DNA from: Ehretia macrophylla
Taxonomy: Eukaryota; Streptophyta; Magnoliopsida; Boraginales; Ehretiaceae
Length of the DNA: 64,000 nucleotides
Assembly (NCBI GenBank): GCA_037974665.1
Contig: CM075775.1
Span: 66,634,311 to 66,698,310, forward strand
Direction of reading: 5' to 3'
A program made the position numbers and the translations under genes. Under the pieces are notes generated by a model. That model did not search any database. It was not told the origin of the DNA and saw nothing but the letters and a program-made list of their open reading frames with translations. Below are positions 9,878 to 30,286 of the stretch, piece by piece (the first letter of the stretch is position 1; each line of letters starts with the position of its first letter).

Positions 9878-9996
9878 GGATGCGATCATACCAGCACTAA
9901 TGCACCGAATCCCATCAGAACTCCGAAGTTAAGCGTGCTTGGACGAGAGTAGTACTAGGATGGGTTGCCCCCTGGGAAGTCCTCGTGTTGCACCCC
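9878..9996 (+). rRNA. 5S rRNA gene B4
   Basis: G3A, G31A, G66A, and GGGTTGCCC in place of GGGTGACCC within box C. Confidence 0.93.
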
Positions 9997-10555
9997 CTTT
10001 TCAATTTTTTTTTGCCCTGATTAGGGTTGCCAAGATACTTTATCCACCAAATCTCTATTACCGAATCGTACGAAACATTGGGCAAGACAACTTCGCTTCA
10101 CGTAGAGTTCGGGCCCGCAAACTGAGGGCGTAGGGTTTATGACCAGGTCTCCGTCACTCCGGTGCCCAAAACTTTTGATCCGTAAGGAGATAAGTGGCGC
10201 ACAGCATACCATTGCAAAGCAATTTTAGAGCTCTACGATGGGGGCAGCTAGCTTGCTCGCTGTGCCCATTTTTGGAGCCCAAATCCGAACATTTTCTTCA
10301 GTTTCAGGACACTTTTGTTCTTTTGCTCTATTTTTTCATCCCGGATCGTACGTCGTGAGCTGTTAAAAGGACGACAACCTAACTCGCGGTACATTAGCAG
10401 GCCTTACAACGTGTCGATATCACGTCTTGCGAGGATGTTGCGTTGTTGAAGCGGATGGGTTGTCGTTAAGCCCCTTGGGCCTTTCGAATGGGCCATCTCT
10501 CTACGCTGGCCCTATGAACCGTTAACACATACAGGAATTGTGCCCTCAACATGAC

Positions 10556-10674
10556 GGGTGTGATCATACCAGCACTAATGCACCGAATCCCACCAGAACT
10601 GCGAAGTTAAGCGTGCTTTGGCGAGAGTAGTACTAGGATGGGTGACCCCCTAGGAAGTCCTCGTGTTGCACCCC
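10556..10674 (+). rRNA. 5S rRNA gene B5
   Basis: C6T, G31A, T38C, C46G, G64T in box A and G97A; box C core intact. The upstream element is ACATACAGG instead of ACATATAGG. Confidence 0.93.
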
Positions 10675-11232
10675 TTTTTCAATTTTTTTTGCCCTGGTTA
10701 GGGTTGCCAATATACTTTATCCACCAAATCTCTATTACCGAATCCAACGGAACATTGGGCAAGAAAACTTCGCTTCACGTAGACGCCGGGCCCACAAACC
10801 GAGGGCGTAGGGTTTGTGACCAGGACTCCGTCGCTCTAGTGCCCATAACTTTTGATCCGTAAGGAGTTACGCGGTGCACAGCATACCGTTGCAAAGCTCT
10901 CTGAGAGCTCTACGATGGGGGCAGCCAACTTGCTCGCTCTGCCAATTTTTGGAGCCCAAAATCGAATGTTTGCATCAATTTCAGGACACTTTTCTTCTTT
11001 TGCCCTGTTTTACCAACCCGGATCGTACGTCGTGAGCTGTTAAAAGGGCGACAACCTGACTCGCGATACATCAGAGGGCACTACAACGTGTCGATATCAT
11101 GTCTTGCGAGGATGCTGCGTTGTTGAAGCGGATGGGTTGTCGTTAAGCCCATTGGGCCTTTTGAATGGGCCATCTCTCTAGGCTGGCACTGTGAACCAGT
11201 AACACATATAGGAATTGTGCCCTCAACATGAC

Positions 11233-11351
11233 TGGTGCGATCATACCAGCACTAATGCACCGGATCCCATCAGAACTCCGAAGTTAAGCGTGCTTGGGCG
11301 AGAGTAGTACTAGGATGGGTTACACCCTGGGAAGTCCTCGTGTTGCACCCC
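11233..11351 (+). rRNA. 5S rRNA gene B6, near consensus
   Basis: One of the three copies closest to consensus: only G1T, G89T and C92A. Box A intact; the two box C changes give GGGTTACAC. Confidence 0.95.
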
Positions 11352-11909
11352 CTTTTCAATTTTTTTTTGCCCTGGTTAGGGTTGCCAAGATACTTTATCC
11401 ACCAAATCTCTATTACCGAATCCCACGGAACATTGGGCAAGACAACTTCGCTTCACGTCGAGGCCGGGCCCGCAAACCGAGGGCGTAGGGTTTGTGACCA
11501 GGTCTCCGTCGCTCCGGTGCCCATAACTTTTGATCCGTAAAGAGTTACGTGGCGCACAGCATACCGTTGCAAAGCTCTCTGAGAGCTCTACGGCGGGGGC
11601 AGCCAGCTTGCTCGCTCTGTCCTTTTTTGATCCCAAAATCGGATATTTTCATCAGTTTCAGGCCACTTTTCTTCTTTTGCTCAATATTTTCATCCCGGAT
11701 CGTGTGTCGTGAGCTGTTAAAAGGATGACAACCTGACTTGCAATACATCAGAGGGCACTAAAACGTGTCGATATTACGTCTTGCGAGGATGCTGCGTTGT
11801 TGAAGCGGATGGGGTGTCCTTAGGCCCACTGGGCCTTTTGAACGGGCCAGCTCTCTAGGCTGGCGCTGGGCACCAGTAACACATATAGGAATTGTGCCCT
11901 CAACATGAC

Positions 11910-12028
11910 TGGTGCGAGCATACCATCACTAATGCACCGAATCCTATCAGAACTCCGAAGTTAAGCGTGCTTGGGCGAGACTAGTACTATGATGGGTGAC
12001 ACCTTAGGAAGTCCTCGTGTTGCACCCC
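11910..12028 (+). rRNA. 5S rRNA gene B7
   Basis: G1T, T9G, G17T, G31A, C36T, G72C, G81T, C92A, C95T and G97A. Box A intact. The upstream spacer is also unusually changed (GGCGCTGGGCACCAGTAAC). Confidence 0.92.
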
Positions 12029-12587
12029 CTTTTCAATTTTTTTTTGCCTTGGTTAGGGTTGCCAAGATACTTTATCCACCAAAGCTATATTACTGAATCC
12101 CACGGAACATTGGGCAAGACAACTTCGCTTCACGTCGAGGCCGGGCCCGCAAACCGAGGGCGTAGGGTTTGTGACCAGGTCTCCGTCGCTCCGATGCCCA
12201 TAACTTTTGATCCGTAAGGAGTTACGTGGCACACAGCATACCGTTACAAAGCTCTCTAAGAGCTCTACGACGGGGGCAGCCAGCTTGCTCACTGTGCCCT
12301 TTTTTGGAGCCCAAAATCGGACATTTTCATCAGTTTCAGGTCACTTTTCTTCTTTTGCCCAGTTTTTTCATCCCAAATCGTACGTCGTGAGCTGTTAAAA
12401 GGACGACAACCTGACTCGCGGTACATCAGAGGGCCATACAACGTGTCGATATCACGTCTTGCGAGGATGCTGCGTTGTTGAAGCGGATGGGTTGTCGTAA
12501 AGCCCATTGGGCCTTTTGAATGGGCCATATCTCTACGCTGACACTGTGAACCGTTAACACATATAGGAATAGTGCCCTCAACATGAC

Positions 12588-12707
12588 TGGTGCGATCATA
12601 CCAGCTCTAATGCACCGGATCCCATCAGAACTCCGAAGTTAAGCGTGCTTGGGCAAGAGTAGTACTAGGATGGGTGACCCCCTGGGAAAGTCATCGTGTT
12701 GCACCCC
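12588..12707 (+). rRNA. 5S rRNA gene B8, 120 bp with extra A
   Basis: G1T, A19T and G68A, plus an extra A in GGGAAAGTC and ATCG for CTCG. The left edge of the 4,058-bp block falls within this gene. Confidence 0.92.
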
Positions 12708-13237
12708 CTTTTCAATTTTTTTTGCCCTGGTTAGGGCTGGCAAGATACTTTATCCACCAAATCTCTATTACCGAATCGCACGAAACATTGGGCAAGACAA
12801 CTTCGCTTCACGTGGAGGCCGGGCTTGTAAACTGAGGGCGTAGGGTTTGTGACCAGGTCTCCGTCGCTACGGTGCCCATAACTTTTGATCCGTAAGGAGT
12901 TATGCGGCGCACAGCATAACGTTGCAAAGCTCTCTGAGAGCTCTACGACGGGGGCAGCCAGCTTGTTTGCTGTGCCCCTTTTTGGAGCCCAAAATCGAAC
13001 GTTTTCATCAGTTTCAAGCCACTTTTGTTCTTTTCCTCGATTTTTCAGTCCCGGATCGTACGTCGTGAGCTGTTAAAAGGATGGCAACCTGACTTGTGGG
13101 ACATCAGAGGGCTCTACAACGTGTCGATATCACGTCCTGCGAGGATGTTGCGTTGTTAAAGTGGATGGGTTGTCGTTAAGCCCATTGGGCCTTTTCAATA
13201 GGCCATCTCTCTAGGCTGGGACTGTGAACCTTTAACA

Positions 13238-13265
13238 CATATAGGAATTGTGCCCTCAACATGAC
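13238..13265 (+). promoter_or_regulatory. 5S upstream promoter, common array B form (B9)
   Basis: CATATAGGAATTGTGCCC then CAACATGAC before the gene. This form, a weaker match to TATATA, precedes most array B genes. Array A uses ACATAATGGCTTTGCACCC at the same place. Confidence 0.7.
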
Positions 13266-13384
13266 GGGTGCGATCATACTAGGAATAATGCATCGAATCC
13301 CATCAGAACTCCGAAGTTAAGCATGCTTGGGCGAGAGTAGTACTAGAATGGGTGACCCCCTGGGAAGTCCTCGTGTTGCACCCC
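13266..13384 (+). rRNA. 5S rRNA gene B9 (block position 2)
   Basis: C15T, C18G, C20A, C28T, G31A, G58A in box A and G82A in box C (AGAATGGGTG). The GGAATAATGC class. Confidence 0.93.
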
Positions 13385-13385
13385 C

Positions 13386-13400
13386 TTTTCAATTTTTTTT
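13386..13400 (+). terminator. Pol III T-run terminator (B9, typical of array B)
   Basis: TTTTC, AA, then eight Ts directly after the gene. Four or more Ts on the non-template strand end Pol III transcription. The same TTTT + CAA + T8 pattern follows nearly every array B gene. A second run gives a built-in backup. Confidence 0.8.
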
Positions 13401-13855
13401 GCCCTGGTCAGGGTTGCCAAGATACTTTATCCCCCAAATCTCTATTACCGAATCCCACGGAACATTGGGCAAGACAACTTCGCTTCAGGTAGAGACCGAG
13501 CCCGCAAACCGAGGGCGTAAGGTTTGTCACCAGGTCTCCGTCGCTACGGTGTCCATAACTTTTGATCCGTAAGGAGTTTCACGGTGCACAACATACCGTT
13601 GCAAGGCTCTCTCATAGCTCTACGACGGTGGTAGCCAACTTGCTCGCTTTGCCCATTTTAGAGCCCAAAATCGAACATTTTCATCAATTTCAGGCTACTT
13701 TTATTCTTTTGCCCTGTTTTTTCGTCCCGGATCGTACGTCGTGAGCTGTTAAAAGGACGACAACCTGACTCGCGGTACATCAGAGAGACGTACAACTTGT
13801 CGATATCACGTCTTTCTAGGATGCTGCGTTGTTAAAGCAGATGGGTTGCCGTTAA

Positions 13856-13880
13856 GCCCATTGGGCCTTTTGAATGGGCC
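13856..13880. promoter_or_regulatory. Palindromic GCCCATTGGGC plus second TGGGCC
   Basis: An 11-bp palindrome and another TGGGCC 8 bp later, about 85 bp upstream of each gene in both array families. TGGGCC/GGCCCA is the core of plant site II elements, which bind TCP factors in ribosomal protein promoters. A role at 5S genes is inference. Confidence 0.45.
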
Positions 13881-13941
13881 ATCTCTGTAGGCTGACACTG
13901 TGAACTGTTAACACATATAAGAATTGAGCCCTCAACATAAC

Positions 13942-14060
13942 ATGTGCGATCATTTCAGCACTAACGTACTGGATCCCATAAGAATACCGAAGTTAAGCTT
14001 GCTTGGGCGAGAGTAGTACTAGGATGGGTGACCCCCTGGGAAGTCCTCGTGTTGCACCCC
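13942..14060 (+). rRNA. 5S rRNA gene B10 (block position 3), 5' end altered
   Basis: Opens ATGTGCGATCATTTCAGC (G1A, G2T and the 13-14 region changed), then T24C, C26T, C29T, C39A, C44T, T45A and G58T. The first two base pairs of helix I should be lost. Box C is intact. Confidence 0.9.
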
Positions 14061-14590
14061 CTTTTCAATTTTTTTTGCCCGCGTTAGGGTTGCCAAGATA
14101 CTTTATCCACCAAATCTCTATTATCGAATCCCATGGAACATTGGGCAAGACAACTTCGCTTAACGTAGAGGCCGGGCCCGCAAAACGAGGGCGTAGGGTT
14201 TGTGACCAGGTCTCCGTTGCTCCGATGCCCAAAACTTTTTATCCGTAAGGAGTTACGCGGCACACAGCAGACCGTTGCAAAGCTCTCTGAGAGCTCTACG
14301 ACGGGGGTAGATAGCTTGATTGCTGTGCCCATTTTTGGAGCCCAAAATAGAACGTTTTCATCAGTTTCCGGCCACATATCTTCTTTTGCCCTGTTTTTCC
14401 GTCCCGGATCGTACGTCGTGAGCTGTTAAAAGGATGACAACCTGACTCTCGGTACATCAGAGGGCAATACAACGTGTCGATATCACGTCTTACGAGGATC
14501 CTGAGTTGTTGAAGCGGATGGGTTGTCGTTAAGCCCATTGGGCCTTTTGAATGCGCCATTTCTCTAGGCTGGCACTGTGAACTGTTAACA

Positions 14591-14618
14591 TATATAGGAA
14601 TTGTGCCCTCAACATGAC
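14591..14618 (+). promoter_or_regulatory. 5S upstream promoter, TATATA form (B11)
   Basis: TATATA lies at -28 to -23, GC at -14/-13 and C at -1. In Arabidopsis 5S genes TATATA near -28, GC near -12 and C at -1 support Pol III initiation. The same TATATA precedes the genes at 18,677, 22,735, 26,793, 28,142 and 31,519. Confidence 0.75.
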
Positions 14619-14737
14619 GGGTACAATCATACCAGCACTAATGCACCGGATCCCATCAGAACTCCGAAGTTAAGCGTGCTTGGGGGATAGTAGTACTAGG
14701 ATGGGTGACCCCCTGGGAAGTCCTCGTGTTGCACACC
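14619..14737 (+). rRNA. 5S rRNA gene B11 (block position 4), TATATA promoter
   Basis: G5A, G7A, C67G and G70T; box A and box C intact; 3' end CACACC. Preceded by an exact TATATA at -28 to -23. Confidence 0.93.
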
Positions 14738-15295
14738 CATTTGAATTTTTTTTGCCCGGGTTATGGTTGCCAAGATACTTTATCCACCAAATCTCTATTA
14801 CCGAATCCCACGGAACATTGGGCAAGACAACTTCCCTTCACGTAGAGACCGGGCCGGCAAACCGAGGGCGTAGGGTTTGTGATCAGGTCTCTGTCGCTCC
14901 GGTGCCCATAACTTTTGTTTCGTAAGGAGTTACATTGCGCACAGCATACCATTGCAAAGCTCTCTGAGAGCTCTACGATGGGGGCAGCCAGCTTGCTCGC
15001 TTTGCCCGTTTTTGGAGCCCAAAATCTAACATTTTCATCAGTTTTAGGCCGCTTTTCTTCTTTAGCCCTGTTTTTCCATCCCGGATCGTACGTCGTGAGT
15101 TGTTAAAAGGACGACAACCTGAATCATGGTACATCAGAGGGCCCTACAACGTGTCGATATCACGTCTTGCGAGGATGAGGCGTTGTTAAAGTGGATGGGT
15201 TATCGTTAAGCCCATTGGGCCTTTTGAATGGACCATCTCTCTAGGCTGGCACTATGAACCGTTAACACATATAGGAATTGTGCCCTCAACATGAC

Positions 15296-15410
15296 GGGTG
15301 CGATCATGCCAACATGCACCGGATCCCATCAGAACTCCGAAGTTAAGCGTGCTTGGGCGAGAGTAGTACTAGGATGGGTAACGCCCTAGGAAGTCCTCGT
15401 GTTGCACCCC
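15296..15410 (+). pseudogene. 5S gene B12 with 4-nt deletion (115 bp)
   Basis: Four bases are missing in the stretch CCAGCACTAATGCACC (here CCAACATGCACC), within the helix II/loop B region. Box C also changes to GGGTAACGCC. Likely non-functional, yet repeated in the 4,058-bp block. Confidence 0.85.
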
Positions 15411-15968
15411 CTTTTCAATTTTTTTTGCCCTTGTTAGGGCTGCCAAGATACTTTATCCACCAAATCTCTATTACCGAATCCCACAGAACATTGGGCAAGA
15501 CAACTTCGCTTCACGTAGAGGCCGGGCCCGCAAACCGAGGGCGTAGACTTTGTGACCAGATCTCTGTCGTTCCCGTGCCCATAACTTTTGATCCGTAAGG
15601 AGTTACGCGGCGCACAGCATACCGTTCCAAATCTCTTTGAGAGCTCTACGATGGGGAAAGCTAGCTTGCACACTGTGCCCCTTTTAGGAGCCCAAAATCA
15701 TACGTTTTCATAAGTTTCAGGCCACTTTTCTTCTTTTGCCCTATTTTTCCGTCCCGGATCGTACGTCGTTAGCTGTTAAAAGGACGACAACCTTACTCGG
15801 GATACATCCGAAGGCCCTACAATGTGTCGATATCACGTCTTGCGAGGATGCTGCGTTGTTGAAGCTGATAGGTTGTCGTTAAGCCCATTGGGCCTTTTGA
15901 ATGAGCCATCTCTCTAGGCTGCGACTGTGAACCGTTAACACATATAGGAATTGTGCCCTCAACATGAC

Positions 15969-16087
15969 GGGTGCGATCATACTAACACTAATGCACCGGA
16001 TCCCATCAGAACTCCGAAGTTAAGCGTGCTAGGGTGAGAGTAGTACTAGGATGGGTGACCCCTTGGGAAGTCCTCGTGTTGCACCCC
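15969..16087 (+). rRNA. 5S rRNA gene B13 (block position 6)
   Basis: C15T, G17A, T63A, C67T and C95T (GTGCTAGGGTGAGAG). Box C intact. Confidence 0.93.
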
Positions 16088-16645
16088 ATTTTCAATTTTT
16101 TTTGCCCCGGTTAGGGTTGCCAATATACTTTATCCACCAAATCTCTATTACCGAATCCCACGGAACATTGGACAAAACAATTTCGCTTCACGTAGATAGC
16201 GGGCCCGCAAACCGAGGGCGTAGGGTTTGTGACTAGGTCTCCGTCCCTCTGGTGCCCATAACTTTTGATACGTAAGGAGTTACACGGCGCACAACATACC
16301 GTTGCATAGCACTCTGAGAGCTCTACGACGGGGGCAGGCAGCTTGCTCGCTATGCCCCTTTTTGGAGCCCAAAATCGAACGTTTTCATCATTTTCAGGCC
16401 ACTTTTCTTCTTTTGCCCTGTTTTTCTATCATGGATCGTACGTCGTGAGCTGTTAAAAGGATAACAACCTAACTCACGGGACATCAGAGAGCCCTACAAC
16501 GTGTCGATATCACGTTTTGCGAGGATGCTGCATTGTTGAAGCGGATAGGTTGTCGTTAAGCCCATTGGGCCTTTTGAATGGGCCATCTCTCTAGGCCGGG
16601 ACTGTGAACCGTTAACACATATAGGAATTGTGCCCTCAACATGAC

Positions 16646-16765
16646 GGGTGTGATCATACCTGCACTACTGCACCGGATCCCATCAGAACTCCGAAGTTAA
16701 GCGTGCTTGGGCAATAGTAGTACTAGGATGGGTGACCCCCTGGGAAAGTCATCGTGTTGCACACC
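16646..16765 (+). rRNA. 5S rRNA gene B14, 120 bp with extra A
   Basis: C6T, A16T, A23C, G68A and G70T, and the extra A in GGGAAAGTCATCG; 3' end CACACC. Partner of B8 (3' half), B20 and B26. Confidence 0.92.
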
Positions 16766-17323
16766 CTTTTCAATTTTTTTTGCCCTGGTTAGGGCTGGCA
16801 AGATACTTTATCCACCAAATCTCTATTACCGAATCGCACGAAACATTGAGCAAGACAACTTCACATCACGTGGAGGCCGGGCTTGTAAACCGAGGGCGTA
16901 GGGTTTGTGACCAGGTCTCCGTCGCTCCGGTGCCCATAACTTTTGATCCGTAAGGACTTATGCGGCGCACAGCATAACGTTGCAAAGCTCTCTGTGAGCT
17001 CTACGACGGGGGTAGCCAGCTAGCTTGCTGTGCCCGTTTTTGGAGCTGAAAATCGAACGTTTTCTTCAGTTTCAGGCCACTTTTGTTCTTTTGCTCTATT
17101 TTTCAGTCCCGGATCGTACGTCGTGAGCTGTTAAAAGGATGGCAACCTGACTCGCGGGACATCAGAGGGCTCTACAACGTGTCGATATCACGTCCTGTGA
17201 GGATGCTGCGTAGTTGAAGTGGATGGGTTGTCGTTAAGCCCATTGGGCCTTTTGAATAGGCCATCTCTCTAGGCTGGGACTGTGAACCGTTAACACAAAT
17301 AGGAATTGTGCCCTCAACATGAC

Positions 17324-17442
17324 GGGTTCGATCATACCAGGAATAATGCACCGAATCCCATCAGAACTCCGAAGTTAAGCATGCTTGGGCGAGAGTAGTA
17401 CTAGAATGGGTGACCCCCTGGGAAGTCCTCGTGTTGCACCCC
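17324..17442 (+). rRNA. 5S rRNA gene B15
   Basis: Partner of B9. G5T, C18G, C20A, G31A, G58A and G82A. The -28 element is weakened to ACAAATAGG. Confidence 0.93.
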
Positions 17443-17999
17443 CTTTTCAATTTTTTTTGCCCTGGTCAGGGTTGCCAAGATACTTTATCCCCCAAATATC
17501 TATTACCGAATCCCACGGAACATTGGGCAAGACAACTTCGCTTCAGGTAGAGACCGAGCCCGCAAACCGAGGGCGTAAGGTTTGTCACCAGGTCTCTGTC
17601 GCTACGGTGTCCATAACTTTTGATCCGTAAGGAGTTTCGCGGTGCACAGCATACCGTTGCAAAGCTCTCTCATAGCTCTACGACGGTGGTAGCCAACTTG
17701 CTCGCTTTGCCCATTTTAGAGACCAAAATCGAACATTTTCATCAATTTCAGGCTACTTTTATTCTTTTACCCTGTTTTTCCGTCCCGGATCGTACGTCAT
17801 GAGCTGTTAAAAGGACGACAACCTGACTCGCGGTACATCAGAGAGACGTACAACTTGTCGATATCACGTCTTGCTAGGATGCTGCGTTGTTAAAGCGGAT
17901 GGGTTGCCGTTAAGCCCATTGAGCCTTTTGAATGGGCCATCTCTGTAGGCTGACACTGTGAACTGTTAACACATATAAGAATTGAGCCCTCAACATAAC

Positions 18000-18118
18000 A
18001 TGTGCGATCATTTCAGCACTAACGTACCGGATCCCATAAGAATACCGAAGTTAAGCTTGCTTGGGCGAGAGTAGTACTAGGATGGTTGACCCCCCGGGAA
18101 GTCCTCGTGTTGCACCCT
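18000..18118 (+). rRNA. 5S rRNA gene B16, 5' end altered
   Basis: Partner of B10, with the ATGTG start, plus G87T in box C and T96C. Confidence 0.9.
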
Positions 18119-18676
18119 ACTTTCAATTTTTTTTGCCCGCGTTAGGGTTGCCAAGATACTTTATCCACCAAATCTTTATTACCAAATCCCACGGAACAAT
18201 GGGTAGGACAACTTCGCTTCACGTAGAGGCCGGGCCCGCAAAACGAGGGCGTAGGGTTTGTGACCAGGTCTCCGTTGCTCCGATGCCCAAAACTTTTTAT
18301 CCGTAAGGAGTTACGCGGCACACAGCAGACCGTTGCAAAGCTCTCTGAGAGCTCTACGACGGGGGTAGATAGCTTGATTGCTGTGCCCATTTTTGGAGCC
18401 CAAAATAGAACGTTTTCATCAGTTTCCGGCCACATATCTTCTTTTGCCCTGTTTTTCTGTCCCGGATCGTACGTCGTGAGCTGTTAAAAGGATGACAACC
18501 TGACTCTCGGTACATCAGAGGGCAATACAACGTGTCGATATCACGTCTTACGAGGATCCTGAGTTGTTGAAGCGGATGGGTTGTCGTTAAGCCCATTGGG
18601 CCTTTTGAATGCGCCATTTCTCTAGGCTGGCACTGTGAACTGTTAACATATATAGGAATTGTGCCCTCAACATGAC

Positions 18677-18795
18677 GGGTACAATCATACCAGCACTAAT
18701 GCACCGGATCCCATCAGAACTCCGAAGTTAAGCGTGCTTGGGCGATAGTAGTACTAGGATGGGTGACCCCCTGGGAAGTCCTCGTGTTGCACACC
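18677..18795 (+). rRNA. 5S rRNA gene B17, TATATA promoter
   Basis: Partner of B11. C67 is intact here; G70T (GGGCGATAG) remains. Confidence 0.93.
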
Positions 18796-19353
18796 CATTT
18801 GAATTTTTTTTGCCCGGGTTATGGTTGCCAAGATACTTTATCCACCAAATCTCTATTACCGAATCCCACGGAACATTGGGCAAGACAACTTCCCTTCACG
18901 TAGAGACCGGGCCGGCAAACCGAGGGCGTAGGGTTTGTGATCAGGTCTCTGTCGCTCCGGTGCCCATAACTTTTGTTTCGTAAGGTGTTACGTTGCGCAC
19001 AGCATACCATTGTAAAGCTCTCTGAGAGCTCTACGATGGGGGCAGCCAGCTTGCTCGCTTTGCCCGTTTTTGGAGCCCAAAATCTAACGTTTTCATCAGT
19101 TTTAGGCCGCTTTTCTTCTTTAGCCCTATTTTTCCATCCCGGATCGTACGTCGTGAGCTGTTAAAAGGACGACAACCTGACTCATGGTACATCAGAGGGC
19201 CCTACAACGTGTCGATATCACGTCTTGCGAGGATGAGGCGTTGTTAAAGTGGATGGGTTATCGTTAAGCCCATTGGGCCTTTTGAATGGACCATCTCTCT
19301 AGGCTGGCACTATGAACCGTTAACACATATAGGAATTGTGCCCTCAACATGAC

Positions 19354-19468
19354 GGGTGCGATTATGCCAACATGCACCGGATCCCATCAGAACTCCGAAG
19401 TTAAGCGTGCTTGGGCGAGAGTAGTACTAGGATGGGTAACGCCCTAGGAAGTCCTCGTGTTGCACCCC
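19354..19468 (+). pseudogene. 5S gene B18 with 4-nt deletion
   Basis: Partner of B12 with the same deletion and GGGTAACGCC. Confidence 0.85.
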
Positions 19469-20026
19469 CTTTTCAATTTTTTTTGCCCTTGTTAGGGCTG
19501 CCAAGATACTTTATCCACCAAATCTCTATTACCGAATCCCACAGAACATTGGGCAAGACAACTTCGCTTCACGTAGAGGCCGGGCCCGCAAACCGAGGGC
19601 GTAGACTTTGTGACCAGGTCTCCGTCGCTCCGGTGCCCATAACTTTTGATCCGTAAGGAGTTACGCGGCGTACAGCATACCTTTGCAAAGCTCTCTGAGA
19701 GCTCTACGATGGGGAAAGCTAGCTTGCACACTGTGCCCCTTTTAGGAGCCCAAAATCAAACGTTTTCATAAGTTTCAGGCCACTTTTCTTCTTTTGCCCT
19801 ATTTTTCCGTCCCGGATCGTACGTCGTTAGCTGTTAAAAGGACGACAACCTGACTCGCGATACATCCGAAGGCCCTACAATGTGTCGATATCACGTCTTG
19901 CGAGGATGCTGCGTTGTTGAAGCGGATAGGTTGTCGTTAAGCCCATTGGGCCTTTTGAATGAGCCATCTCTCTAGGCTGCGACTGTGAACCGTTAACACA
20001 TATAGGAATTGTGCCCTCAACATGAC

Positions 20027-20145
20027 GGGTGCGATCATACTAACACTAATGCACCGGATCCCATCAGAACTCCGAAGTTAAGCGTGCTAGGGTGAGAGTA
20101 GTACTAGGATGGGTGACCCCTTGGGAAGTCCTCGTGTTGCACCCC
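20027..20145 (+). rRNA. 5S rRNA gene B19
   Basis: Partner of B13 with the same GTGCTAGGGTGAGAG box A. Confidence 0.93.
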
Positions 20146-20703
20146 ATTTTCAATTTTTTTTGCCCCGATTAGGGTTGCCAATATACTTTATCCACCAAAT
20201 CTCTATTACCGAATCCCACGGAACATTGGACAAAACAATTTCGCTTCACGTAGATAGCGGGCCCGCAAACCGAGGGCGTAGGGTTTGTGACTAGGTCTCC
20301 GTCCCTCTGGTGCCCATAACTTTTGATACGTAAGGAGTTACACGGCGCACAACATACCGTTGCATAGCACTCTGAGAGCTCTACGACGGGGGCAGGCAGC
20401 TTGCTCGCTATGCCCCTTTTTGGAGCCCAAAATCGAACGTTTTCATCATTTTCAGGCCACTTTTCTTCTTTTGCCCTGTTTTTCTATCATGGATCGTACG
20501 TCGTGAGCTGTTAAAAGGACAACAACCTAACTCACGGGACATCAGAGGGCCCTACAACGTGTCGATATCACGTTTTGCGAGGATGCTGCATTGTTGAAGC
20601 GGATAGGTTGTCGTTAAGCCCATTGGGCCTTTTGAATGGGCCATCTCTCTAGGCCGGGACTGTGAACCGTTAACACATATAGGAATTGTGCCCTCAACAT
20701 GAC

Positions 20704-20823
20704 GGGTGTGATCATACCTGCACTACAGCACCGGATCCCATCAGAACTCCGAAGTTAAGCGTGCTTGGGCAATAGTAGTACTAGGATGGGTGACCCCCTG
20801 GGAAAGTCATCGTGTTGCACACC
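20704..20823 (+). rRNA. 5S rRNA gene B20, 120 bp with extra A
   Basis: Partner of B14; it also has CACTACAGC in the early region. Confidence 0.92.
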
Positions 20824-21381
20824 CTTTTCAATTTTTTTTGCCCTGGTTAGGGCTGGCAAGATACTTTATCCACCAAATCTCTATTACCGAATCGCACGAA
20901 ACATTGAGCAAGACAACTTCACATCACGTGGAGGCCGGGCTTGTAAACCGAGGGCGTAGGGTTTGTGACCAGGTCTCCGTCGCTATGGTGCCCACAACTT
21001 TTGATCCGTAAGGAGTTATGTGGCGCACAGCATACCGTTGCAAAGCTCTCCGAGAGCTCTACGACAGGGGCAGCCAGCTTGCTCGCTCTGCCCCTTTTTG
21101 GAGCCCAAAATCGAACGTTTTCATCAGTTTCAAGCCACTTTTGTTCTTTTGCTCGATTTTTCAGTCCCGGATCGTATGTCGTGAGCTGTTAAAAGGATGG
21201 CAACCTGACTCGCGGGACATCAGAGGGCTCTACAACGTGTCGATATCACGTCCTGTGAGGATGCTCCGTAGTTGAAGTGGATGCGTTGTCGTTAAGCACA
21301 TTGGGCCTTTTGAATACGCCATCTCCCTAGGCTGGGACTGTGAACCGTTAACACAAATAGGAATTGTGCCCTCAACATGAC

Positions 21382-21500
21382 GGGTGCGATCATACCAGGA
21401 ATAATGCACCGAATCCCATCAGAACTCCGAAGTTAAGCATGCTTGGGCGAGAGTAGTACTAGAATGGGTGACCCCCTGGGAAGTCCTCGTGTTGCACCCC
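21382..21500 (+). rRNA. 5S rRNA gene B21
   Basis: Partner of B15, but G5 is intact. The ACAAATAGG upstream element is retained. Confidence 0.93.
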
Positions 21501-22057
21501 ATTTTCAATTTTTTTTGCCCTGGTTAGGGTTGCCAAGATACTTTATCCACCAAATCTCTATTACCGAATCCCACGGAACCTTGGGCAAGACAACTTCGCT
21601 TCAGGTAGAGACCGAGCCCGCAAACCGAGGGCGTAAGGTTTGTCACCAGGTCTCTGTCGCTACGGTGTCCATAACTTTTGATCCGTAAGGAGTTTCGCGG
21701 TGCACAGCATACCGTTGCAAAGCTCTCTCATAGCTCTACGACGGTGGTAGCCAACTTGCTCGCTTTGCCCATTTTAGAGCCCAAAATCGAACATTTTCAT
21801 CAATTTCAGGCTACTTTTATTCTTTTACCCTGTTTTTCCGTCCCGGATCGTACGTCATGAGCTGTTAAAAGGACGACAACCTGACTCGCGGTACATCAGA
21901 GAGACGTACAACTTGTCGATATCACGTCTTGCTAGGATGCTGCGTTGTTAAAGCGGATGGGTTGCCGTTAAGCCCATTGAGCCTTTTGAATGGGCCATCT
22001 CTGTAGGCTGACACTGTGAACTGTTAACACATATAAGAATTGAGCCCTCAACATAAC

Positions 22058-22176
22058 ATGTGCGATCATTTCAGCACTAACGTACCGGATCCCATAAGAA
22101 TACCGAAGTTAAGCTTGCTTGGGCGAGAGTAGTACTAGGATGGTTGACCCCCTGGGAAGTCCTCGTGTTGCACCCC
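22058..22176 (+). rRNA. 5S rRNA gene B22, 5' end altered
   Basis: Partner of B16, with the ATGTG start and G87T; T96 is intact. Confidence 0.9.
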
Positions 22177-22734
22177 CTTTTCAATTTTTTTTGCCCGCGT
22201 TAGGGTTGCCAAGATACTTTATCCACCAAATCTCTATTATCGAATCCCATGGAACATTGGGCAAGACAACTTCGCTTAACGTAGAGGCCGGGCCCGCAAA
22301 ACGAGGGCGGAGGGTTTGTGACCAGGTCTCCGTTGCTCCGATGCCCAAAACTTTTTATCCGTAAGGAGTTACGCGGCACACAGCAGACCGTTGCAAAGCT
22401 CTCTGAGAGCTCTACGACGGGGGTAGATAGCTTGATTGCTGTGCCCATTTTTGGAGCCCAAAATAGAACGTTTTCATCAGTTTCCGGCCACATATCTTCT
22501 TTTGCCCTGTTTTTCTGTCCCGGATCGTACGTCGTGAGCTGTTAAAAGGATGACAACCTGACTCTCGGTACATCAGAGGGAAATACAACGTGTCGATATC
22601 ACGTCTTACGAGGATCCTGAGTTGTTGAAGCGGATGGGTTGTCGTTAAGCCCATTGGGCCTTTTGAATGCGCCATTTCTCTAGGCTGGCACTGTGAACTG
22701 TTAACATATATAGGAATTGTGCCCTCAACATGAC

Positions 22735-22853
22735 GGGTACAATCATACCAGCACTAATGCACCGGATCCCATCAGAACTCCGAAGTTAAGCGTGCTTGGG
22801 GGATAGTAGTACTAGGATGGGTGACCCCCTGGGAAGTCCTCGTGTTGCACCCC
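22735..22853 (+). rRNA. 5S rRNA gene B23, TATATA promoter
   Basis: Partner of B11, including C67G (GGGGGATAG). Confidence 0.93.
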
Positions 22854-23411
22854 CATTTCAATTTTTTTTGCCCGGGTTATGGTTGCCAAGATACTTTATC
22901 CACCAAATCTCTATTACCGAATCCCACGGAACATTGGGCAAGACAACTTCCCTTCACGTAGAGACCGGGCCGGCAAACCGAGGGCGTAGGGTTTGTGATC
23001 AGGTCTCTGTTGCTCCGGTGCCCATAACTTTTGTTTCGTAAGGTGTTACGTTGCGCACAGCATACCGTTGCAAAGCTCTCTGAGAGCTCTACGATGGGGG
23101 CAGCCAACTTGCTCGCTCTGCCCGTTTTTGGAGCCCAAAATTGAACGTTTTCATCAGTTTCAGGCCGCTTTTCTTCTTTTGCCCTGTTTTTCCATCCCGT
23201 ATCGTACGTCGTGAGCTGTTAAAAGGACGACAACCTGGCTCATGGTACATCAGAGGGCCCTACAACGTGTCGATATCACGTCTTGCGAGGATGAGGCGTC
23301 GTTGAAGTGGATGGGTTATCGTTAAGCCCATTGGGCCTTGTGAATGGACCATCTCTCTAGGCTGGCACTATGAACCGTTAACACATATAGGAAGTGTGCC
23401 CTCAACATGAC

Positions 23412-23526
23412 GGGTGCGATCATGCCAACATGCACCGGATCCCATCAGAACTCCGAAGTTAAGCGTGCTTGGGCGAGAGTAGTACTAGGATGGGTAACGC
23501 CCTAGGAAGTCCTCGTGTTGCACCCC
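23412..23526 (+). pseudogene. 5S gene B24 with 4-nt deletion
   Basis: Partner of B12 and B18 with the same deletion. Confidence 0.85.
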
Positions 23527-24084
23527 CTTTTCAATTTTTTTTGCCCTTGTTAGGGCTGCCAAGATACTTTATCCACCAAATCTCTATTACCGAATCCCAC
23601 AGAACATTGGGCAAGACAACTTCGCTTCACGTAGAGGCCGGGCCCGCAAACCGAGGGCGTAGACTTTGTGACCAGGTCTCCGTCGCTCCCGTGCCCATAA
23701 CTTTTGATCCGTAAGGAGTTACGCGGCGTACAGCATACCTTTGCAAAGCTCTCTGAGAGCTCTACGATGGGGAAAGCTAGCTTGCACACTGTGCCCCTTT
23801 TAGGAGCCCAAAATCAAACGTTTTCATAAGTTTCAGGCCACTTTTCTTCTTTTGCCCTATTTTTCCGTCCCGGATCGTACGTCGTTAGCTGTTAAAAGGA
23901 CGACAACCTGACTCGCGATACATCCGAAGGCCCTACAATGTGTCGATATCACGTCTTGCGAGGATGCTGCGTTGTTGAAGCGGATAGGTTGTCGTTAAGC
24001 CCATTGGGCCTTTTGAATGAGCCATCTCTCTAGGCTGCGACTGTGAACTGTTAACACATATAGGAATTGTGCCCTCAACATGAC

Positions 24085-24203
24085 GGGTGCGATCATACTA
24101 ACACTAATGCACCGGATCCCATCAGAACTCCGAAGTTAAGCGTGCTTGGGTGAGAGTAGTACTAGGATGGGTGACCCCTTGGGAAGTCCTCGTGTTGCAC
24201 CCC
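24085..24203 (+). rRNA. 5S rRNA gene B25
   Basis: Partner of B13, but T63 is intact (GTGCTTGGGTGAG), giving a better box A. Confidence 0.94.
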
Positions 24204-24761
24204 ATTTTCAATTTTTTTTGCCCCGGTTAGGGTTGCCAATATACTTTATCCACCAAATCTCTATTACCGAATCCCACGGAACATTGGACAAGACAATTTT
24301 GCTTCACGTAGATAGCGGGCCCGCAAACCGAGGGCGTAGGGTTTGTGACTAGGTCTCCGTCCCTCTGGTGCCCATAACTTTTGATACGTAAGGAGTTACA
24401 CGGCACACAGCATACCGTTGCCAAGCACTCTGAGAGCTCTACGACGGGGGCAGCCAGCTTGCTCGTTGTGACCCTTTTTGGAGCCCAAAATCGAACGTTT
24501 TCATCACTTTCAGGCCACTTTTCTTCTTTTGCCCTGTTTTTCCATCCTGGATCGTACGTCGTTGGCTGTTAAAAGGACGACGACCTGACTCGCGGGACAT
24601 CAGAGGGCCCTACAATGTGTCGATATCATGTCTTGCGAGGATGCTGCATTGTTGAAGCGGATGGGTTGTCGTTAAGCCCATTGGGCCTTTTGAATGGGCC
24701 ATCTCTCAAGGCCAGGACTGTGAACCGTTAACACATATAGGAATTGTGCCGTCAACATGAC

Positions 24762-24881
24762 GGGTGCGATCATACCTGCACTACTGCACCGGATCCCATC
24801 AGAACTCCGAAGTTAAGCGTGTTCGGGCGAGAGTAGTACTAGGATGGGTGACCCCCTGGGAAAGTCCTCGTGTTGCACCCC
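24762..24881 (+). rRNA. 5S rRNA gene B26, 120 bp with extra A
   Basis: Partner of B14. A16T and A23C; C61T and T63C in box A (GTGTTCGGG). The extra A is kept, but CTCG is normal. Confidence 0.92.
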
Positions 24882-25439
24882 CTTTTCAATTTTTTTTGCC
24901 CTGGTTAGGGATGGCAAGATACTTTATCCACCAAATCTCTATTACCGAATCGCACGAAACATTGAGCAAGACAACTTCACATCACGTGGAGGCCGGGCTT
25001 GTAAACCGAGGGCGTAGGGTTTGTGACCAGGTCTCCGTCGCTACGGTGCCCATAACTTTTGATTCGTAAGGAGTTACGCAGCGCACAGCATAACGTTGCA
25101 AAGCTCTCTTAGAGCTCTACGACGGGGACAGCCAGCTTGCTTACTGTGCCCCTTTTTGGAGCCTAAAATCGAACGTTTTCATCAGTTTCAAGCCACTTTT
25201 ATTCTTTTGCTCGATTTTTCAGTCCCGGATCGTACGTCGTGAGCTGTTAAAAGGATGGCAACCTGACTCGCGGGACATCAGAGGGCTCTACAACGGGTCG
25301 ATATCACGTCCTGCGAGGATGCTGCGTTGTTGAAGTGGATGGGTGGTCGTTAAGCCCATTGGGCCTTTTGAATAGGCCATCTCTCTAGGCTGGGACTGTG
25401 AACCGTTAACACAAATAGGAATTGTGCCCTCAACATGAC

Positions 25440-25558
25440 GGGTGCGATCATACCAGGAATAATGCACCGAATCCCATCAGAACTCCGAAGTTAAGCATGC
25501 TTGGGCGAGAGTAGTACTAGAATGGGTGACCCCCTGGGAAGTCCTCGTGTTGCACCCC
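25440..25558 (+). rRNA. 5S rRNA gene B27
   Basis: Partner of B21: C18G, C20A, G31A, G58A and G82A, with ACAAATAGG upstream. Confidence 0.93.
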
Positions 25559-26115
25559 CTTTTCAATTTTTTTTGCCCTGGTCAGGGTTGCCAAGATACT
25601 TTATCCCCCAAATCTCTATTACCGAATCCCACGGAACATTGGGCAAGACAACTTCGCTTCAGGTAGAGACCGAGCCCGCAAACCGAGGGCGTAAGGTTTG
25701 TCACCAGGTCTCTGTCGCTACGGTGTCCATAACTTTTGATCCGTAAGGAGTTTCGCGGTGCACAGCATACCGTTGCAAAGCTCTCTCATAGCTCTACGAC
25801 GGTGGTAGCCAACTTGCTCGCTTTGCCCATTTTGGAGCCCAAAATCGAACGTTTTCATCAATTTCAGGCTACTTTTATTCTTTTGCCCTGTTTTTCCGTC
25901 CCGGATCGTACGTCGTGAGCTATTAAAAGGACGACAACCTGACTCACGGTACATCAGAGAGACGTACAACGTGTCGATATCACGTCTTGCTAGGATGCTG
26001 CGTTGTTAAAGCGGATGGGTTGCCGTTAAGCCCATTGGGCCTTTTGAATGGGCCATCTCTGTAGGCTGACACTGTGAACCGTTAACACATATAAGAATTG
26101 AGCCCTCAACATAAC

Positions 26116-26234
26116 ATGTGCGATCATTTCAGCACTAACGCACCGGATCCCATCAGAACACCGAAGTTAAGCGTGCTTGGGCGAGAGTAGTACTAGGATA
26201 GGTGACCCCATGGGAAGTCCTCGTGTTGCACCCC
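26116..26234 (+). rRNA. 5S rRNA gene B28, 5' end altered
   Basis: The ATGTG start class, but box A is restored (AAGCGTGC). G85A and C95A. Confidence 0.91.
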
Positions 26235-26792
26235 CTTTTCAATTTTTTTTGCCCTGGTTAGGGTTGCCAAGATACTTTATCCACCAAATCTCTATTACCG
26301 AATCCCACGGAACATTGGGCAAGACAACTTCGCTTCACGTAGAGGCCGAGCCCGCAAAACGAGGGCGTAGGGTTTGTGACCCGGTCTCCGTTGCTCCGGT
26401 GCCCATAACTTTTGATACGTAAGGAGTTACGCGGCACACAGCAGACCGTTGCAAAGCTCTCTGAGAGCTCTACGACGGGGGTAGATAGCTTGATTGCTGT
26501 ACCCATTTTTGGAGCCCAAAATAGAACGTTTTCATCAGTTTCAGGCCACATTTCTTCTTTTGCCCTGTTTTTCCGTCCCGGATCGTACGTCGTGAGCAGT
26601 TAAAAGGATGACAACCTGACTCTCGGTACATCAGAGGGCCCAACAATGTGTCAATATCACGTCTTACGAGGATCCTGAGTTGTTGAAGCGGATGGGTTGT
26701 CGTTAAGCCCATTGGGCCTTTTGAATGTGCCATTTCTCTAGGCTGGCACTGTGAACTGTTAACATATATAGGAATTGTGCCCTCAACATGAC

Positions 26793-26911
26793 GGGTACAA
26801 TCATACCAGCACTAATGCACCGGATCCCATCAGAACTCCGAAGTTAAGCGTGCTTGGGCGATAGTAGTACTAGGATGGGTGACCCCCTGGGAAGTCCTCG
26901 TGTTGCACCCC
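26793..26911 (+). rRNA. 5S rRNA gene B29, TATATA promoter
   Basis: B11 class. G5A, G7A and G70T; box A and box C intact. Confidence 0.93.
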
Positions 26912-27469
26912 TATTTCAATTTTTTTTGCCCTGGTTATGGTTGCCAAGATACTTTATCCACCAAATCTCTATTACCGAATCCCACGGAACATTGGGCAAG
27001 ACAACTTCCCTTCACGTAGAGACCGGGCCGGCAAACCGAGGGCGTAGGGTTTGTGATCAGGTCTCTATCGCTCCGGTGCCCATAACTTTTGTTTCGTAAG
27101 GAGTTACGCTGCGCACAGCATACCATTGCAAAGCTCTCTGAGAGCTCTACGATGGGGGCAGCCAGCTTGCTCACTTTGCCCATTTTTGGAGCACAAAATC
27201 TAACGTTTTCATCAGTTTTAGGCCGCTTTTCTTCTTTAGCCCTATTTTTCCGTCCCGGATCGTACGTCGTGAGCTGTTAAAAGGACAACAACCTGACTCA
27301 TGGTACATCAAAGGATCCTACAACGTGTCGATATCACGTCTTGCGAAGATGGGGCGTTGTTGAAGTGGATGGGTTATTGTTAAGCCCATTGGGCCTTTTG
27401 AATGGACCATCTCTCTAGGCTGGCACTGTGAACCGTTAACACATATAGGAATTGTGCCCTCAACATGAC

Positions 27470-27584
27470 GGGTGCGATCATGCCAGCATGCACCGGATCC
27501 CATCAGAACTCCGAAGTTAAGCGTGCTTGGACGAGAGTAGTACTAGGATGGGTAACGCCCTAGGAAGTCCTCGTGTTGCACCCC
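27470..27584 (+). pseudogene. 5S gene B30 with 4-nt deletion
   Basis: The last member of the B12 class (GCCAGCATGCACC). The spacer after it switches repeat class. Confidence 0.85.
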
Positions 27585-28141
27585 CTTTTCAATTTTTTTT
27601 GCCCTTGTTAGGGTTGCCAAGATACTTTATCCACCAAATCTCTATTACCGAATCCCACGGAACATTGGGCAAGACAACTTCGCTTCACGTAGAGGCCGGG
27701 CCCGCAAAACGAGGGCGTAGGGTTTGTGACCAGGTCTCCGTTGCTCCGGTGCCCATAACTTTTAATCTGTAAGGAGTTATGCGGCACACAGCAGACCGTT
27801 GCAAAGCTCTCTGAGAGCTCTACGACGGGGGTAGATAGCTTGATTGCTTTGCCCATTTTTGGAGCCTAAAACCGAACGTTTTCATCAGTTTCAGGCCACT
27901 TTTCTTCTTTTGCCCTATTTTTCATCCCGGATCATACGTCGTGAGCTGTTAAAGGGATTACAACCTGACTTGCTGTACATCAGAGGGCCCTACAACGTGT
28001 CGATATCACGTCTTACGAGGATCTTGCGTTGTTGAAGCGGATGGGTTGTCGTTAAGCCCATTGGGCCTTTTGAATGGGCCATCTCTCTAGGCTGGCACTG
28101 TGAACTGTTAACATATATAGGAATTGTGCCCTCAACATGAC

Positions 28142-28260
28142 AGGTGTGATTATACCAGAACTAATGCACTGGATCCCATCAGAACTCCGAAGTTAAGCGT
28201 GCTTGGGCGAGAGTAGTTCTAGGATGGGTGACCCCCTGAGAAGTCCTCGTGTTGCACCCC
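28142..28260 (+). rRNA. 5S rRNA gene B31, TATATA promoter
   Basis: G1A, C6T, C10T, C18A, C29T, A77T and G98A; box A and box C intact. Confidence 0.93.
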
Positions 28261-28818
28261 CTTTTCAATTTTTTTTTCCCTAGTTAGGGTTGCCAAGATA
28301 CTTTATCCACCAAATCTCTATTACCGAATCCCACGAAACATTGGGCAAAACAACTTCGCTTCACGTAGAGGCCGAGCCCGCAAACCGAGGATGTGGGGTT
28401 TGTGACCAGGTCGCCGTCGCTCTGGTGCCCATAACTTTTGATCTGTAAGGAGTTATGCGGCGCACAGCATACCATTGCAAAGCTCTCTAAGAGGTCTACG
28501 ACGGGGGTAGCCAGCTTGCTTGCTGTGCCCCTGTTTGGAGCCCAAAATCGAACGTTTTCATCAGTTTCAGGCCACTTTTGTTCTTTTGCTCTATTTTTCG
28601 GTCCCGGATCGTACGTCGTGAGCTGTTAAAAGGACGACAACCTGACTCGCGGGACATCAGGGGGCCCTACAACGTGTCGATATCACGTCTAGCGAGGATG
28701 CTACGTTGTTGAAGCGGATGGGTTGTCATTAAGCCCATTGGGCCTTTTGAATGGGCCATCTCTCTAGGCTGGGACTATGAACCGTCAACACATATAGGAA
28801 TTGTGCCCTCAACATGAC

Positions 28819-28937
28819 GGGAGCGATCATACAAGCACTAATGCACCGAATCCCATCAGAACTCCGAAGTTAAGCGTGCTTGGGCGAGAGTAGTTCTAGG
28901 ATGGGTGACCCCATGAGAAGTCCTCGTGTTGCACCCG
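28819..28937 (+). rRNA. 5S rRNA gene B32
   Basis: T4A, C15A, G31A, A77T, C95A and G98A; ends CACCCG. Box A and box C intact. T4A breaks a helix I pair. Confidence 0.92.
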
Positions 28938-29494
28938 CTTTTCAATTTTTTTTCCCTAGTTAGGGTTGCCAAGATACTTTATCCACCAAATCTCTATTAT
29001 CGAATCCCACGGAACATTGGCCAAGACAATTTCGCTTCACGTAGATAGCGGGCCCGCAAACCGAGGGCGTAGGGTTTGTGACTAGGTCTCCGTCCCTCCG
29101 GTGCCCATAACTTTTGATACTTAAGGAGTTACACGGCGCACAGCATACCGTTGCAAAGCACTCTGAGAGCTCTACGACGGGGGCAAGAAGCTTGCTCGCT
29201 ATGCCCCTTTTTGGAGCCCAAAATCGAACGTTTTCATCATTTTCAGGCCATTTTTCTTCTTTTGCCCTGTTTTTCCATCCTGGATCGTACGTCGTGAGCT
29301 GTTAAAAGGACAACGACCTGACTCGCGGGACATTAGAGGGCCCTACAACGTGTCGATATCACATTTTGCGAGGTTGCTGCGTTGTTGAAGCGGATAGGTT
29401 ATCGTTAAGCCCATTGGGCCTTTTGAATGGGCCATCTCTCTAGGCCGGGACTGTGAACCATTAACACATATAAGAATTGTGCCCTCAACATGAC

Positions 29495-29613
29495 GGGTGC
29501 GATCATACCTGCACTAATGCACCGAATCCCATCAGAACTCCGAAGTTATGCGTGCTTGGGCGAGAGTAGTACTAGAATGGGTGACCCCCTGGGAAGTCCT
29601 CGTGTTGCACCCC
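29495..29613 (+). rRNA. 5S rRNA gene B33
   Basis: A16T, G31A, A55T in box A (TTATGCG) and G82A in box C. Confidence 0.93.
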
Positions 29614-30167
29614 ATTTTCAATTTTTTTTGCCCTGGTTAGGGTTGCTAAGATACTTTATCCCCCAAATCTCTATTACCGAAACCCACGGAACATTGGGCA
29701 AGACAACTTCGCTTCAGGTAGAGGCCGGGCCCGCAAACCGAGGGCGTAGGGTTTGTGACCAAGTCTCTGTCTCTCCGGTGTCCATAACTTTTGATCCGTA
29801 AGGAGTTACGCGGTGCACAGCATACCGTTGCAAAGCACTCTGAGAGCTCTACGATGAGGGCAGCCAGCTTGCTTGCTGTGCCCCTTTTTGGAGCCCAAAA
29901 TCGAACGTTTTCATCAATTTCAGGCCACTTTTGTTCTTTTGCTCTATTTTTCAATCCCGGATCGTACGTCGTGAGCTGTTAAAAGGACGGCAACCTGACA
30001 CGCGGGACTTCAGAGGGCTCTACATCGTGTCGATATCACGTCTTGCGAGGATGCTGCGTTGTTGAAGCGGATGGGTTGTCGTTAAGCCCATTGGGCTGAA
30101 TAGGCCATCTCTCAAGGCTGGGACTGTGAACCGTTAACACAGATAGGAATTGTGCCCTCAACATGAT

Positions 30168-30286
30168 GGGTGCGATCATACCAGGAATAATGCACCTTAT
30201 CCCATCAGAACTCCGAAGTTATGCGTGCTTGGGCGAGAGTAGTACTAGAATGGGTGACCCCATGGGAAGTCCTCGTGTTGCACCCC
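30168..30286 (+). rRNA. 5S rRNA gene B34
   Basis: C18G, C20A, G30T, G31T, A55T, G82A and C95A. The upstream element is ACAGATAGG. Confidence 0.92.

What the first reader, a model, noticed from the sequence alone, without database searches (positions are those of the whole stretch)
12650..27640. A 4,058-bp, six-gene higher-order repeat in three full copies plus a partial fourth
Gene starts at 13,266, 17,324, 21,382 and 25,440, and all their neighbours, repeat at exactly 4,058 bp. Private marks (extra A in box C region, ATGTG start, TATATA promoter, 4-nt deletion) recur in the same order. Such strict higher-order structure is well known for centromeric satellites but little described for 5S rDNA. 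It implies recent amplification of a multi-gene block, not single-unit homogenisation.
Basis: seen in the sequence. Interest (0 to 1): 0.75.

Follow-up and report, generated by a model that had tools for sequence, protein, structure and literature searches.

The report
Six-unit repeat block in decayed 5S array
In a plant-like genome that appears to hold over two hundred thousand 5S ribosomal RNA gene units, a six-unit block in a decayed array has been copied in tandem, and its copies still show traces of the recombination that multiplied them.

Summary
The window is a same-strand array with 95 Rfam 5S matches, mostly about 677 bp apart. From about 12,430-12,610 to about 27,710, a six-unit block repeats at 4,058 bp: same-class units average 97.0% identity, different-class units 88.8% (30 and 201 pairs). 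That is about 3.7-3.8 copies.

Related arrays lie on C10 (8.25 Mb, collinear at 98.3% and 97.5%), inverted at C10 15.6 Mb and C8 5.7 Mb, and partly on C6. C12 and C10a have four block copies, C10b and C8 two. Copies 2 and 3 look like hybrids of copies 4 and 1, with the same breakpoint in both arrays, as unequal crossing over (or a circle route) predicts; the left half of this evidence is weaker.

The array decays like a neutral satellite: gene and spacer diverge equally (0.0199, 0.0204; p=0.77). Pattern counts give 228,930 and 250,355 hits genome-wide, control 0, about 10% of the assembly. The block is not young: copies differ by 2.3-3.9%. No raw reads were available; the species is unidentified.

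The parts
12588..16645 (+). Block copy 1 (phase set at the first class-20 gene): 6 units of 678, 676, 677, 677, 673 and 677 bp. The repeat itself begins about 12,428-12,612.
16646..20703 (+). Block copy 2, read as a hybrid: copy-4-like left of about 17,780-17,855, copy-1-like to the right
20704..24761 (+). Block copy 3, read as a hybrid with the same breakpoint (about 21,838-21,913)
24762..27709 (+). Block copy 4, partial (about 4.4 units); homology ends inside the unit that starts at 27,470
28142..33549 (+). Older, more decayed block duplications downstream: unit pairs 43/48 and 44/49 (lag 5), and units 46 and 47 with block units 39 and 40 (lag 7), identity 0.945-0.963
1..64000 (+). Whole window: 5S-like array, 95 Rfam RF00001 matches, all on + strand; collinear with C10:8,250,615-8,314,579
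13605..13797 (+). Interval in copy-1 coordinates that holds the recombination point of copies 2 and 3: 13,722-13,797 with the 48 polarised sites, 13,605-13,660 with all 89 sites

Best explanation
The block is a short higher-order repeat inside a very large, largely dead 5S-derived satellite. Shown: (1) a six-unit block exists as two diverged copies, A and B (B partial), in arrays on C8 and C10; (2) C12 and its near-duplicate on C10 have four copies, of which 2 and 3 match copy 1 (A) on the right and share copy-4 (B) states at the informative sites on the left, with one shared breakpoint; (3) genes and spacers diverge equally, and outside the block neighbours are no more alike than distant units. 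Inferred: a six-unit block was first duplicated by misaligned exchange between in-register units. In the ancestor of the C12 and C10a arrays, A and B then misaligned by one block and crossed over inside the class-21 unit, giving A-H-B; a second misaligned exchange gave A-H-H-B. The array was then copied between chromosomes. Unit-by-unit homogenisation has stopped, so recombination is visible only as block copying and conversion patches.
For: Class identities and shuffle control. Hybrid structure: of 48 polarised sites, 12 at or before the left edge were set aside; the 8 from 13,035 to 13,722 are all copy-4-like in all four hybrids, and of the 28 to the right 26, 26, 28 and 27 are copy-1-like (C12 copy 2, C10a copy 2, C12 copy 3, C10a copy 3). 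A/B columns agree for classes 21, 22 and 23. Two copies on C8 and C10b, four on C12 and C10a. Divergence: A-B 3.7-5.4%; C12-C10b 2.6-3.3%; A-H in the right part 1.5-2.0%; C12-C10a 0.5-2.9%. Array quartet C12+C10a against C10b+C8, from 21 unit sets: 119 supporting sites against 15 and 5. Neutral genes: 221/11,119 against 1,059/51,952, p=0.77. Transitions at CG and CHG 7-10% per site, against 3.3-3.5% at CHH and 0.9-1.4% at A/T. Flat divergence with lag in units 52-95.
Against: The left half of the hybrid reading is weak: over 12,588-13,600 the hybrids of C12 are 3.2-3.9% from copy 4 and 4.0-4.5% from copy 1, while copies 1 and 4 are only 3.7% apart in C12, so H is not clearly a recent piece of B there; it rests on 8 sites and on class trees. 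The single class-20 A/B column is inconsistent. The breakpoint moves to 13,605-13,660 with all 89 sites. C12-C8 divergence (2.9-4.5%) overlaps A-B, and intervals for hybrid formation and the C12-C10b split overlap. Without an outgroup, 2 copies on C8 and C10b could be a later contraction; C6 has one incomplete copy followed by an apparent deletion and does not polarise. Conversion-like patches (500-bp identity 0.91-1.00 between C12 and C10a) blur dates. Copy 2-copy 3 divergence differs between C12 (3.2% left, 2.0% right) and C10a (1.6%, 1.3%). Over the whole window mean identity does fall slightly with lag, 0.883 to 0.864.
Confidence: 0.72

Rival explanations
1. Circle route: recombination between copies A and B released a one-block DNA circle (B-left, A-right), which was copied by rolling circle and re-inserted, giving two H copies at once.
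For: It predicts the same H structure and shared breakpoint; in the right part copies 2 and 3 are about as far from each other (2.0% in C12, 1.3% in C10a) as from copy 1.
Against: Only two H copies; no circle data. The sequence alone cannot separate this from two successive unequal crossovers.
Confidence: 0.15
2. Assembly artefact: the block copies, or the C12 and C10 arrays, are false duplications, for instance two haplotypes placed on different chromosomes.
For: No reads were available; C12 and C10a are 97.5-98.3% identical over 64 kb, which could also be allelic divergence; everything comes from one assembly.
Against: In the four pairs compared, block copies differ at 67-115 of 2,925 sites, so they are not the same sequence laid twice. 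Related arrays with different copy numbers and orientations share old landmarks. Even if C12 and C10a were haplotypes, the block would remain.
Confidence: 0.07
3. Ordinary functional 5S rDNA cluster with some spacer variants under weak concerted evolution.
For: 95 units still score as 5S genes in Rfam and the array consensus is a normal plant-like 5S ('plant-like' is recalled).
Against: Gene and spacer diverge equally; in the first 119 bases 0 of 95 units have fewer than 3 differences from the consensus, and 9 of 95 keep all three promoter boxes (box positions recalled). A better candidate for active genes is the sample at C1 0.94 Mb (gene/spacer ratio 0.61).
Confidence: 0.06

Closest known systems
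Amplified 5S rDNA of pikes (Esox), PMC5437419 (start of abstract, passages, sections 19 and 24 seen)
   Same: Very many 5S copies (over 20,000; over 200,000 by slot blot) at many loci; 'higher-order organisation' examined in long reads; methylated
   Different: There spacers vary about 5-fold more than genes and the authors infer concerted evolution; the four types are tandem, tandem plus unique DNA, inverted, and dispersed, not a fixed n-unit block. Here genes and spacers vary alike and a six-unit block is resolved.
5S rDNA of Prosopanche panguanensis, PMC12222929 (abstract and passages seen)
   Same: 5S rDNA reported as over 15% of a plant genome by read clustering
   Different: The array structure of that species was not resolved in what I read; Hydnoraceae 5S is reported as over 15% divergent from other angiosperms, unlike the normal-looking consensus here.
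Higher-order repeats of centromeric satellites such as primate alpha satellite (recalled)
   Same: Neighbouring units diverged, n-unit blocks alike, explained by unequal exchange
   Different: Only 3.7-3.8 block copies, 2-4% divergent; a 5S-like gene lies in each unit; centromere position not tested.
Assembled plant 5S arrays: maize Mo17 (PMC10335936) and Arabidopsis (PMC9757041) (passages seen)
   Same: Long tandem 5S arrays; in maize variant units, with one end of the array more diverse
   Different: Maize has 1,387 copies (0.44 Mb) and Arabidopsis Col-0 about 3,962 (1.98 Mb) per those passages; no fixed 5S block in the passages seen; here 228,930-250,355 pattern hits.

Membership tests
5S rRNA gene family (Rfam RF00001) | Sequence-structure match above the curated score | tested here: met
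   95 matches above gathering score 38 (42.8-109.1 bits), all + strand
Functional 5S rDNA array | Gene more conserved than spacer | tested here: not met
   C12-C10a 0.0199 gene vs 0.0204 spacer; within the window (82 units from 13 on) ratio 0.92
Functional 5S rDNA array | Transcribed into ribosomal 5S RNA | not testable with these tools
   no expression data
Array under concerted evolution | Units homogenised; neighbours more alike than distant units | tested here: not met
   0.104-0.112 divergence at seven lags from 1 to 40, units 52-95; whole-window identity falls only from 0.883 to 0.864 over lags 1-39
Higher-order repeat | n-unit block in tandem with same-position identity above neighbour identity | tested here: met
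   0.970 vs 0.888, no overlap; 16-unit run vs shuffle maximum 3
Higher-order repeat | Long, near-identical array of many blocks | tested here: not met
   about 3.7-3.8 copies, 96.1-97.7% identical in the four pairs of copies compared
Centromeric satellite | Located at an active centromere | not tested
   no centromere data; the C6, C8 and C10 arrays lie about 5.7-15.7 Mb from a contig end (contig lengths); length of C12 not seen

The most novel reading that the evidence does not exclude
A plant genome in which 5S rDNA has escaped concerted evolution and become a leading satellite (about 240,000 or more units, some 10% of the assembly). It would be ordered at three scales: 5- to 10-unit blocks; arrays of 64 kb or more copied between chromosomes in both orientations; and Mb-scale segments repeated on C5, C8 and C9. 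The recombination history would be readable base by base.
Probability: 0.55. Interest if true: 0.75.

Novelty: new variant of a known kind. Interest (0 to 1): 0.6.

Why it matters
rDNA is the textbook case of concerted evolution, and higher-order repeats are mostly studied in centromeric satellites, where homogenisation erases intermediate steps (both recalled). Here unit-level homogenisation has stopped in the stretch examined, so related arrays at different copy number (2 and 4) can be compared and a candidate breakpoint located. That makes a long-standing model, block growth by unequal exchange, directly testable. The genome-wide amount of 5S-derived DNA, if confirmed by reads, would be far above the assembled plant cases cited here, though a higher share has been reported for one species from short reads.

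Tried and rejected
Single-unit homogenisation: rejected for units 52-95 by the flat lag curve. Chance: rejected by shuffles. Identical-copy assembly duplication of the block: disfavoured by 67-115 differences in 2,925 sites in the four pairs of copies compared.

Led nowhere: Tandem Repeats Finder, limited to periods up to 500 bp, gave one row, a 447-bp period at 33,323-34,215. The 4,351-bp unit interval in C10a (4,349 bp in C10b) gave only open frames of under 100 codons and was not identified. Literature searches did not let me name the species. A possible second six-unit block on C1 (exact spacer matches at 15,405,316 and four more at 4,067-4,068-bp steps) could not be read.

Unit sets: searches use 95 Rfam matches. 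on use 95 nhmmer units, with one more at about 35,351 that Rfam did not report and without the cut-off last one; numbers agree up to unit 53. For one search each unit's first 119 bases were used. The C1 samples were not in the block scan.
Full report
What is there. The window (G000:C12:66,634,311-66,698,310 of a 1.58-Gb, 20-contig assembly) is one array of 5S-like units, 95 Rfam matches on the + strand, mostly 675-679 bp apart. Of 231 pairs among units 20-41, same-class pairs (30) average 0.970 and different-class pairs (201) 0.888 without overlap. A run of 16 units at lag 6 compares with at most 3 in 2,000 shuffles of the units from 13 on. Change-points put the repeat at about 12,430-12,610 to about 27,710, 3.7-3.8 copies. 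An older, weaker layer lies downstream at lags 5 and 7.

Relatives in the same genome. The window is collinear with C10:8,250,615-8,314,579 at 98.3% and 97.5% over two long alignments. Inverted relatives at C10 about 15.6 Mb and C8 about 5.7 Mb share odd spacings: 554/683/415 (C12, C10a; 554/682/415 in C10b), 450-451/406-407, 447-448, 609 and 663-666; the C8 sample starts after the first of these and the C6 sample shows only a 608. By unit matching, C12 and C10a hold four block copies, C10b and C8 two (the second partial), and C6 one incomplete copy followed by an apparent deletion. A search with class-21 letters, up to 2 mismatches, gave 144 hits, only the first places being printed. Of the 13 with 0 or 1 mismatch, 12 lie in these five arrays and one on C9; the second C8 copy is not among them.

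How the block grew. Call A and B the first and last copies. With A and B defined by C8 and C10b, copies 2 and 3 of C12 and C10a are B-type at three of four class-21 columns and A-type at the last; copy 1 is itself B-type at one of these. In class 22 they are A-type at 13 of 15 (C12 copy 2) or 14 of 15 columns (the other three), and in class 23 at 2 of 2. The only class-20 column is inconsistent. Class 24 was not used because copy 4 runs out of homology inside it. A second painting uses sites where copies 1 and 4 differ in both arrays. All 89 sites to the right edge give a change at 13,605-13,660, with 26 copy-4-like and 9 copy-1-like to the left and 5-7 against 47-49 to the right. Dropping changes private to copy 1 or copy 4 leaves 48 sites and a change at 13,722-13,797. 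Twelve of these, 12,422-12,610, lie at or before the left edge and were set aside; 8 of 8 remaining left sites are copy-4-like in all four hybrids; on the right 26, 26, 28 and 27 of 28 are copy-1-like. This A-H-H-B order is what crossing over between A and B, misaligned by one block, yields. A circle released between A and B and re-inserted would look the same.

What speaks against it. By overall distance the left part is not clear: the C12 hybrids are 3.2-3.9% from copy 4 and 4.0-4.5% from copy 1, with copies 1 and 4 at 3.7% in C12. The right part is clear: 1.5-2.0% from copy 1 and 4.4-4.8% from copy 4 in the pairs compared. Divergences suggest the order A/B duplication (3.7-5.4%), split from C10b (2.6-3.3%), hybrid formation (about 2%), C12/C10a split (0.5-2.9%), but C12-C8 is 2.9-4.5%, intervals overlap and conversion-like patches are visible.

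Not an isolated case. The same scan (runs of 3 or more units above 0.93) finds block-like lags in 5 of 6 arrays scanned: lag 6 in C12, C10a, C10b and C8; lag 10 in C10a and C10b; lag 8 in C10a; lag 5 in C10b and C8; lag 7 (3 units) in C4; none in the 14 units of C6 (larger lags of 12, 15 and 18, mostly sums of these, left out). Four of the five are relatives, so they are not independent. The two C1 samples were not scanned.

Status of the genes. C12-C10a pairs (95) differ at 221/11,119 gene and 1,059/51,952 spacer sites (p=0.77). In the first 119 bases no unit of 95 has fewer than 3 differences from the consensus and 9 of 95 keep the three promoter boxes, whose positions I recalled. Transitions are concentrated at CG and CHG sites, as expected of methylated DNA (inference). 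Units 13-95 lie 6.0% from their consensus and 10.8% apart, a ratio of 0.89 to a perfect star; in units 52-95 divergence does not grow with distance, while over the whole window identity falls from 0.883 to 0.864 between lags 1 and 39, probably because the first dozen units are older. The 119-base consensus gene is the same in the C1, C4 and C12 (units from 13 on) samples, which fits amplification from one master followed by decay (inference). A 10-kb sample at C1 0.94 Mb is more uniform (0.947) with a gene/spacer ratio of 0.61 and may be nearer to an active array.

Amount in the genome. A 23-base gene pattern with up to 3 mismatches has 228,930 hits and a 25-base spacer pattern 250,355; reversed controls have 0. 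In my sampled units the patterns recover 463 and 356 of 489, so the gene pattern implies about 240,000 units, or about 164 Mb, 10% of the assembly, if most are full length. The spacer pattern, scaled the same way, would imply about 340,000; the samples are not random, so I use the lower figure. An exact 63-base gene string has 15,007 copies but one in the window. Larger-scale order is hinted at: one rare variant occurs 12 times, seven of them on C9 between 1.1 and 12.5 Mb. For 7 of the 12 a second variant lies 0.7-1.2 Mb away in a consistent orientation; on C3 the orientation does not fit, three have no partner listed, and one lies beyond the printed list.

Compared with print. Pikes are the closest case with a named higher-order organisation; that paper says it had not, to its authors' knowledge, been examined before in any system (passages, sections 19 and 24). 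Prosopanche panguanensis is reported with over 15% 5S rDNA (abstract and passages), so a high share is not unheard of. Searches for 5S with higher-order repeats, derived satellites or unequal crossing over listed no plant 5S six-unit block by title or start of abstract; most listed papers were not read, and the library lacks most subscription journals.

Verdict. The block is real, is a higher-order repeat in kind though short, most likely grew by homologous recombination between block copies, and sits in a huge and here decayed 5S-derived satellite. The main gaps are the absence of raw reads, of an outgroup, and of the species name.

Noticed in passing
whole genome: 228,930 and 250,355 5S-unit pattern hits on both strands, roughly 10% of a 1.58-Gb assembly; 15,007 copies of an exact 63-base 5S string.
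   Followed up: partly
G000:C9 1.1-12.5 Mb, C8 2.7 and 4.5 Mb, C5 74.5 and 76.3 Mb: One rare 5S variant recurs at 1.6-2.4 Mb steps in both orientations, suggesting Mb-scale segmental repeats.
   Followed up: no
G000:C1 15,405,316-15,421,610: Exact spacer matches at 4,067-4,068-bp steps, five in a row: perhaps another six-unit block.
   Followed up: partly
window 481-7,850: The first dozen units are much more diverged (9 full-length ones: gene 0.173, spacer 0.168 apart) and include short units of 407-450 bp: an older stretch of the array.
   Followed up: partly
L009 (C10a) 4,610-8,961, and C10b counterpart: A 4.35-kb unit interval (about 3.7 kb of extra DNA) at like places in two arrays; no open frame of 100 codons (C10a copy looked at).
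   Followed up: partly
L034 (C1:940,000-949,999): More uniform 5S array with 675-689-bp units and a gene/spacer divergence ratio of 0.61; candidate for active genes.
   Followed up: partly
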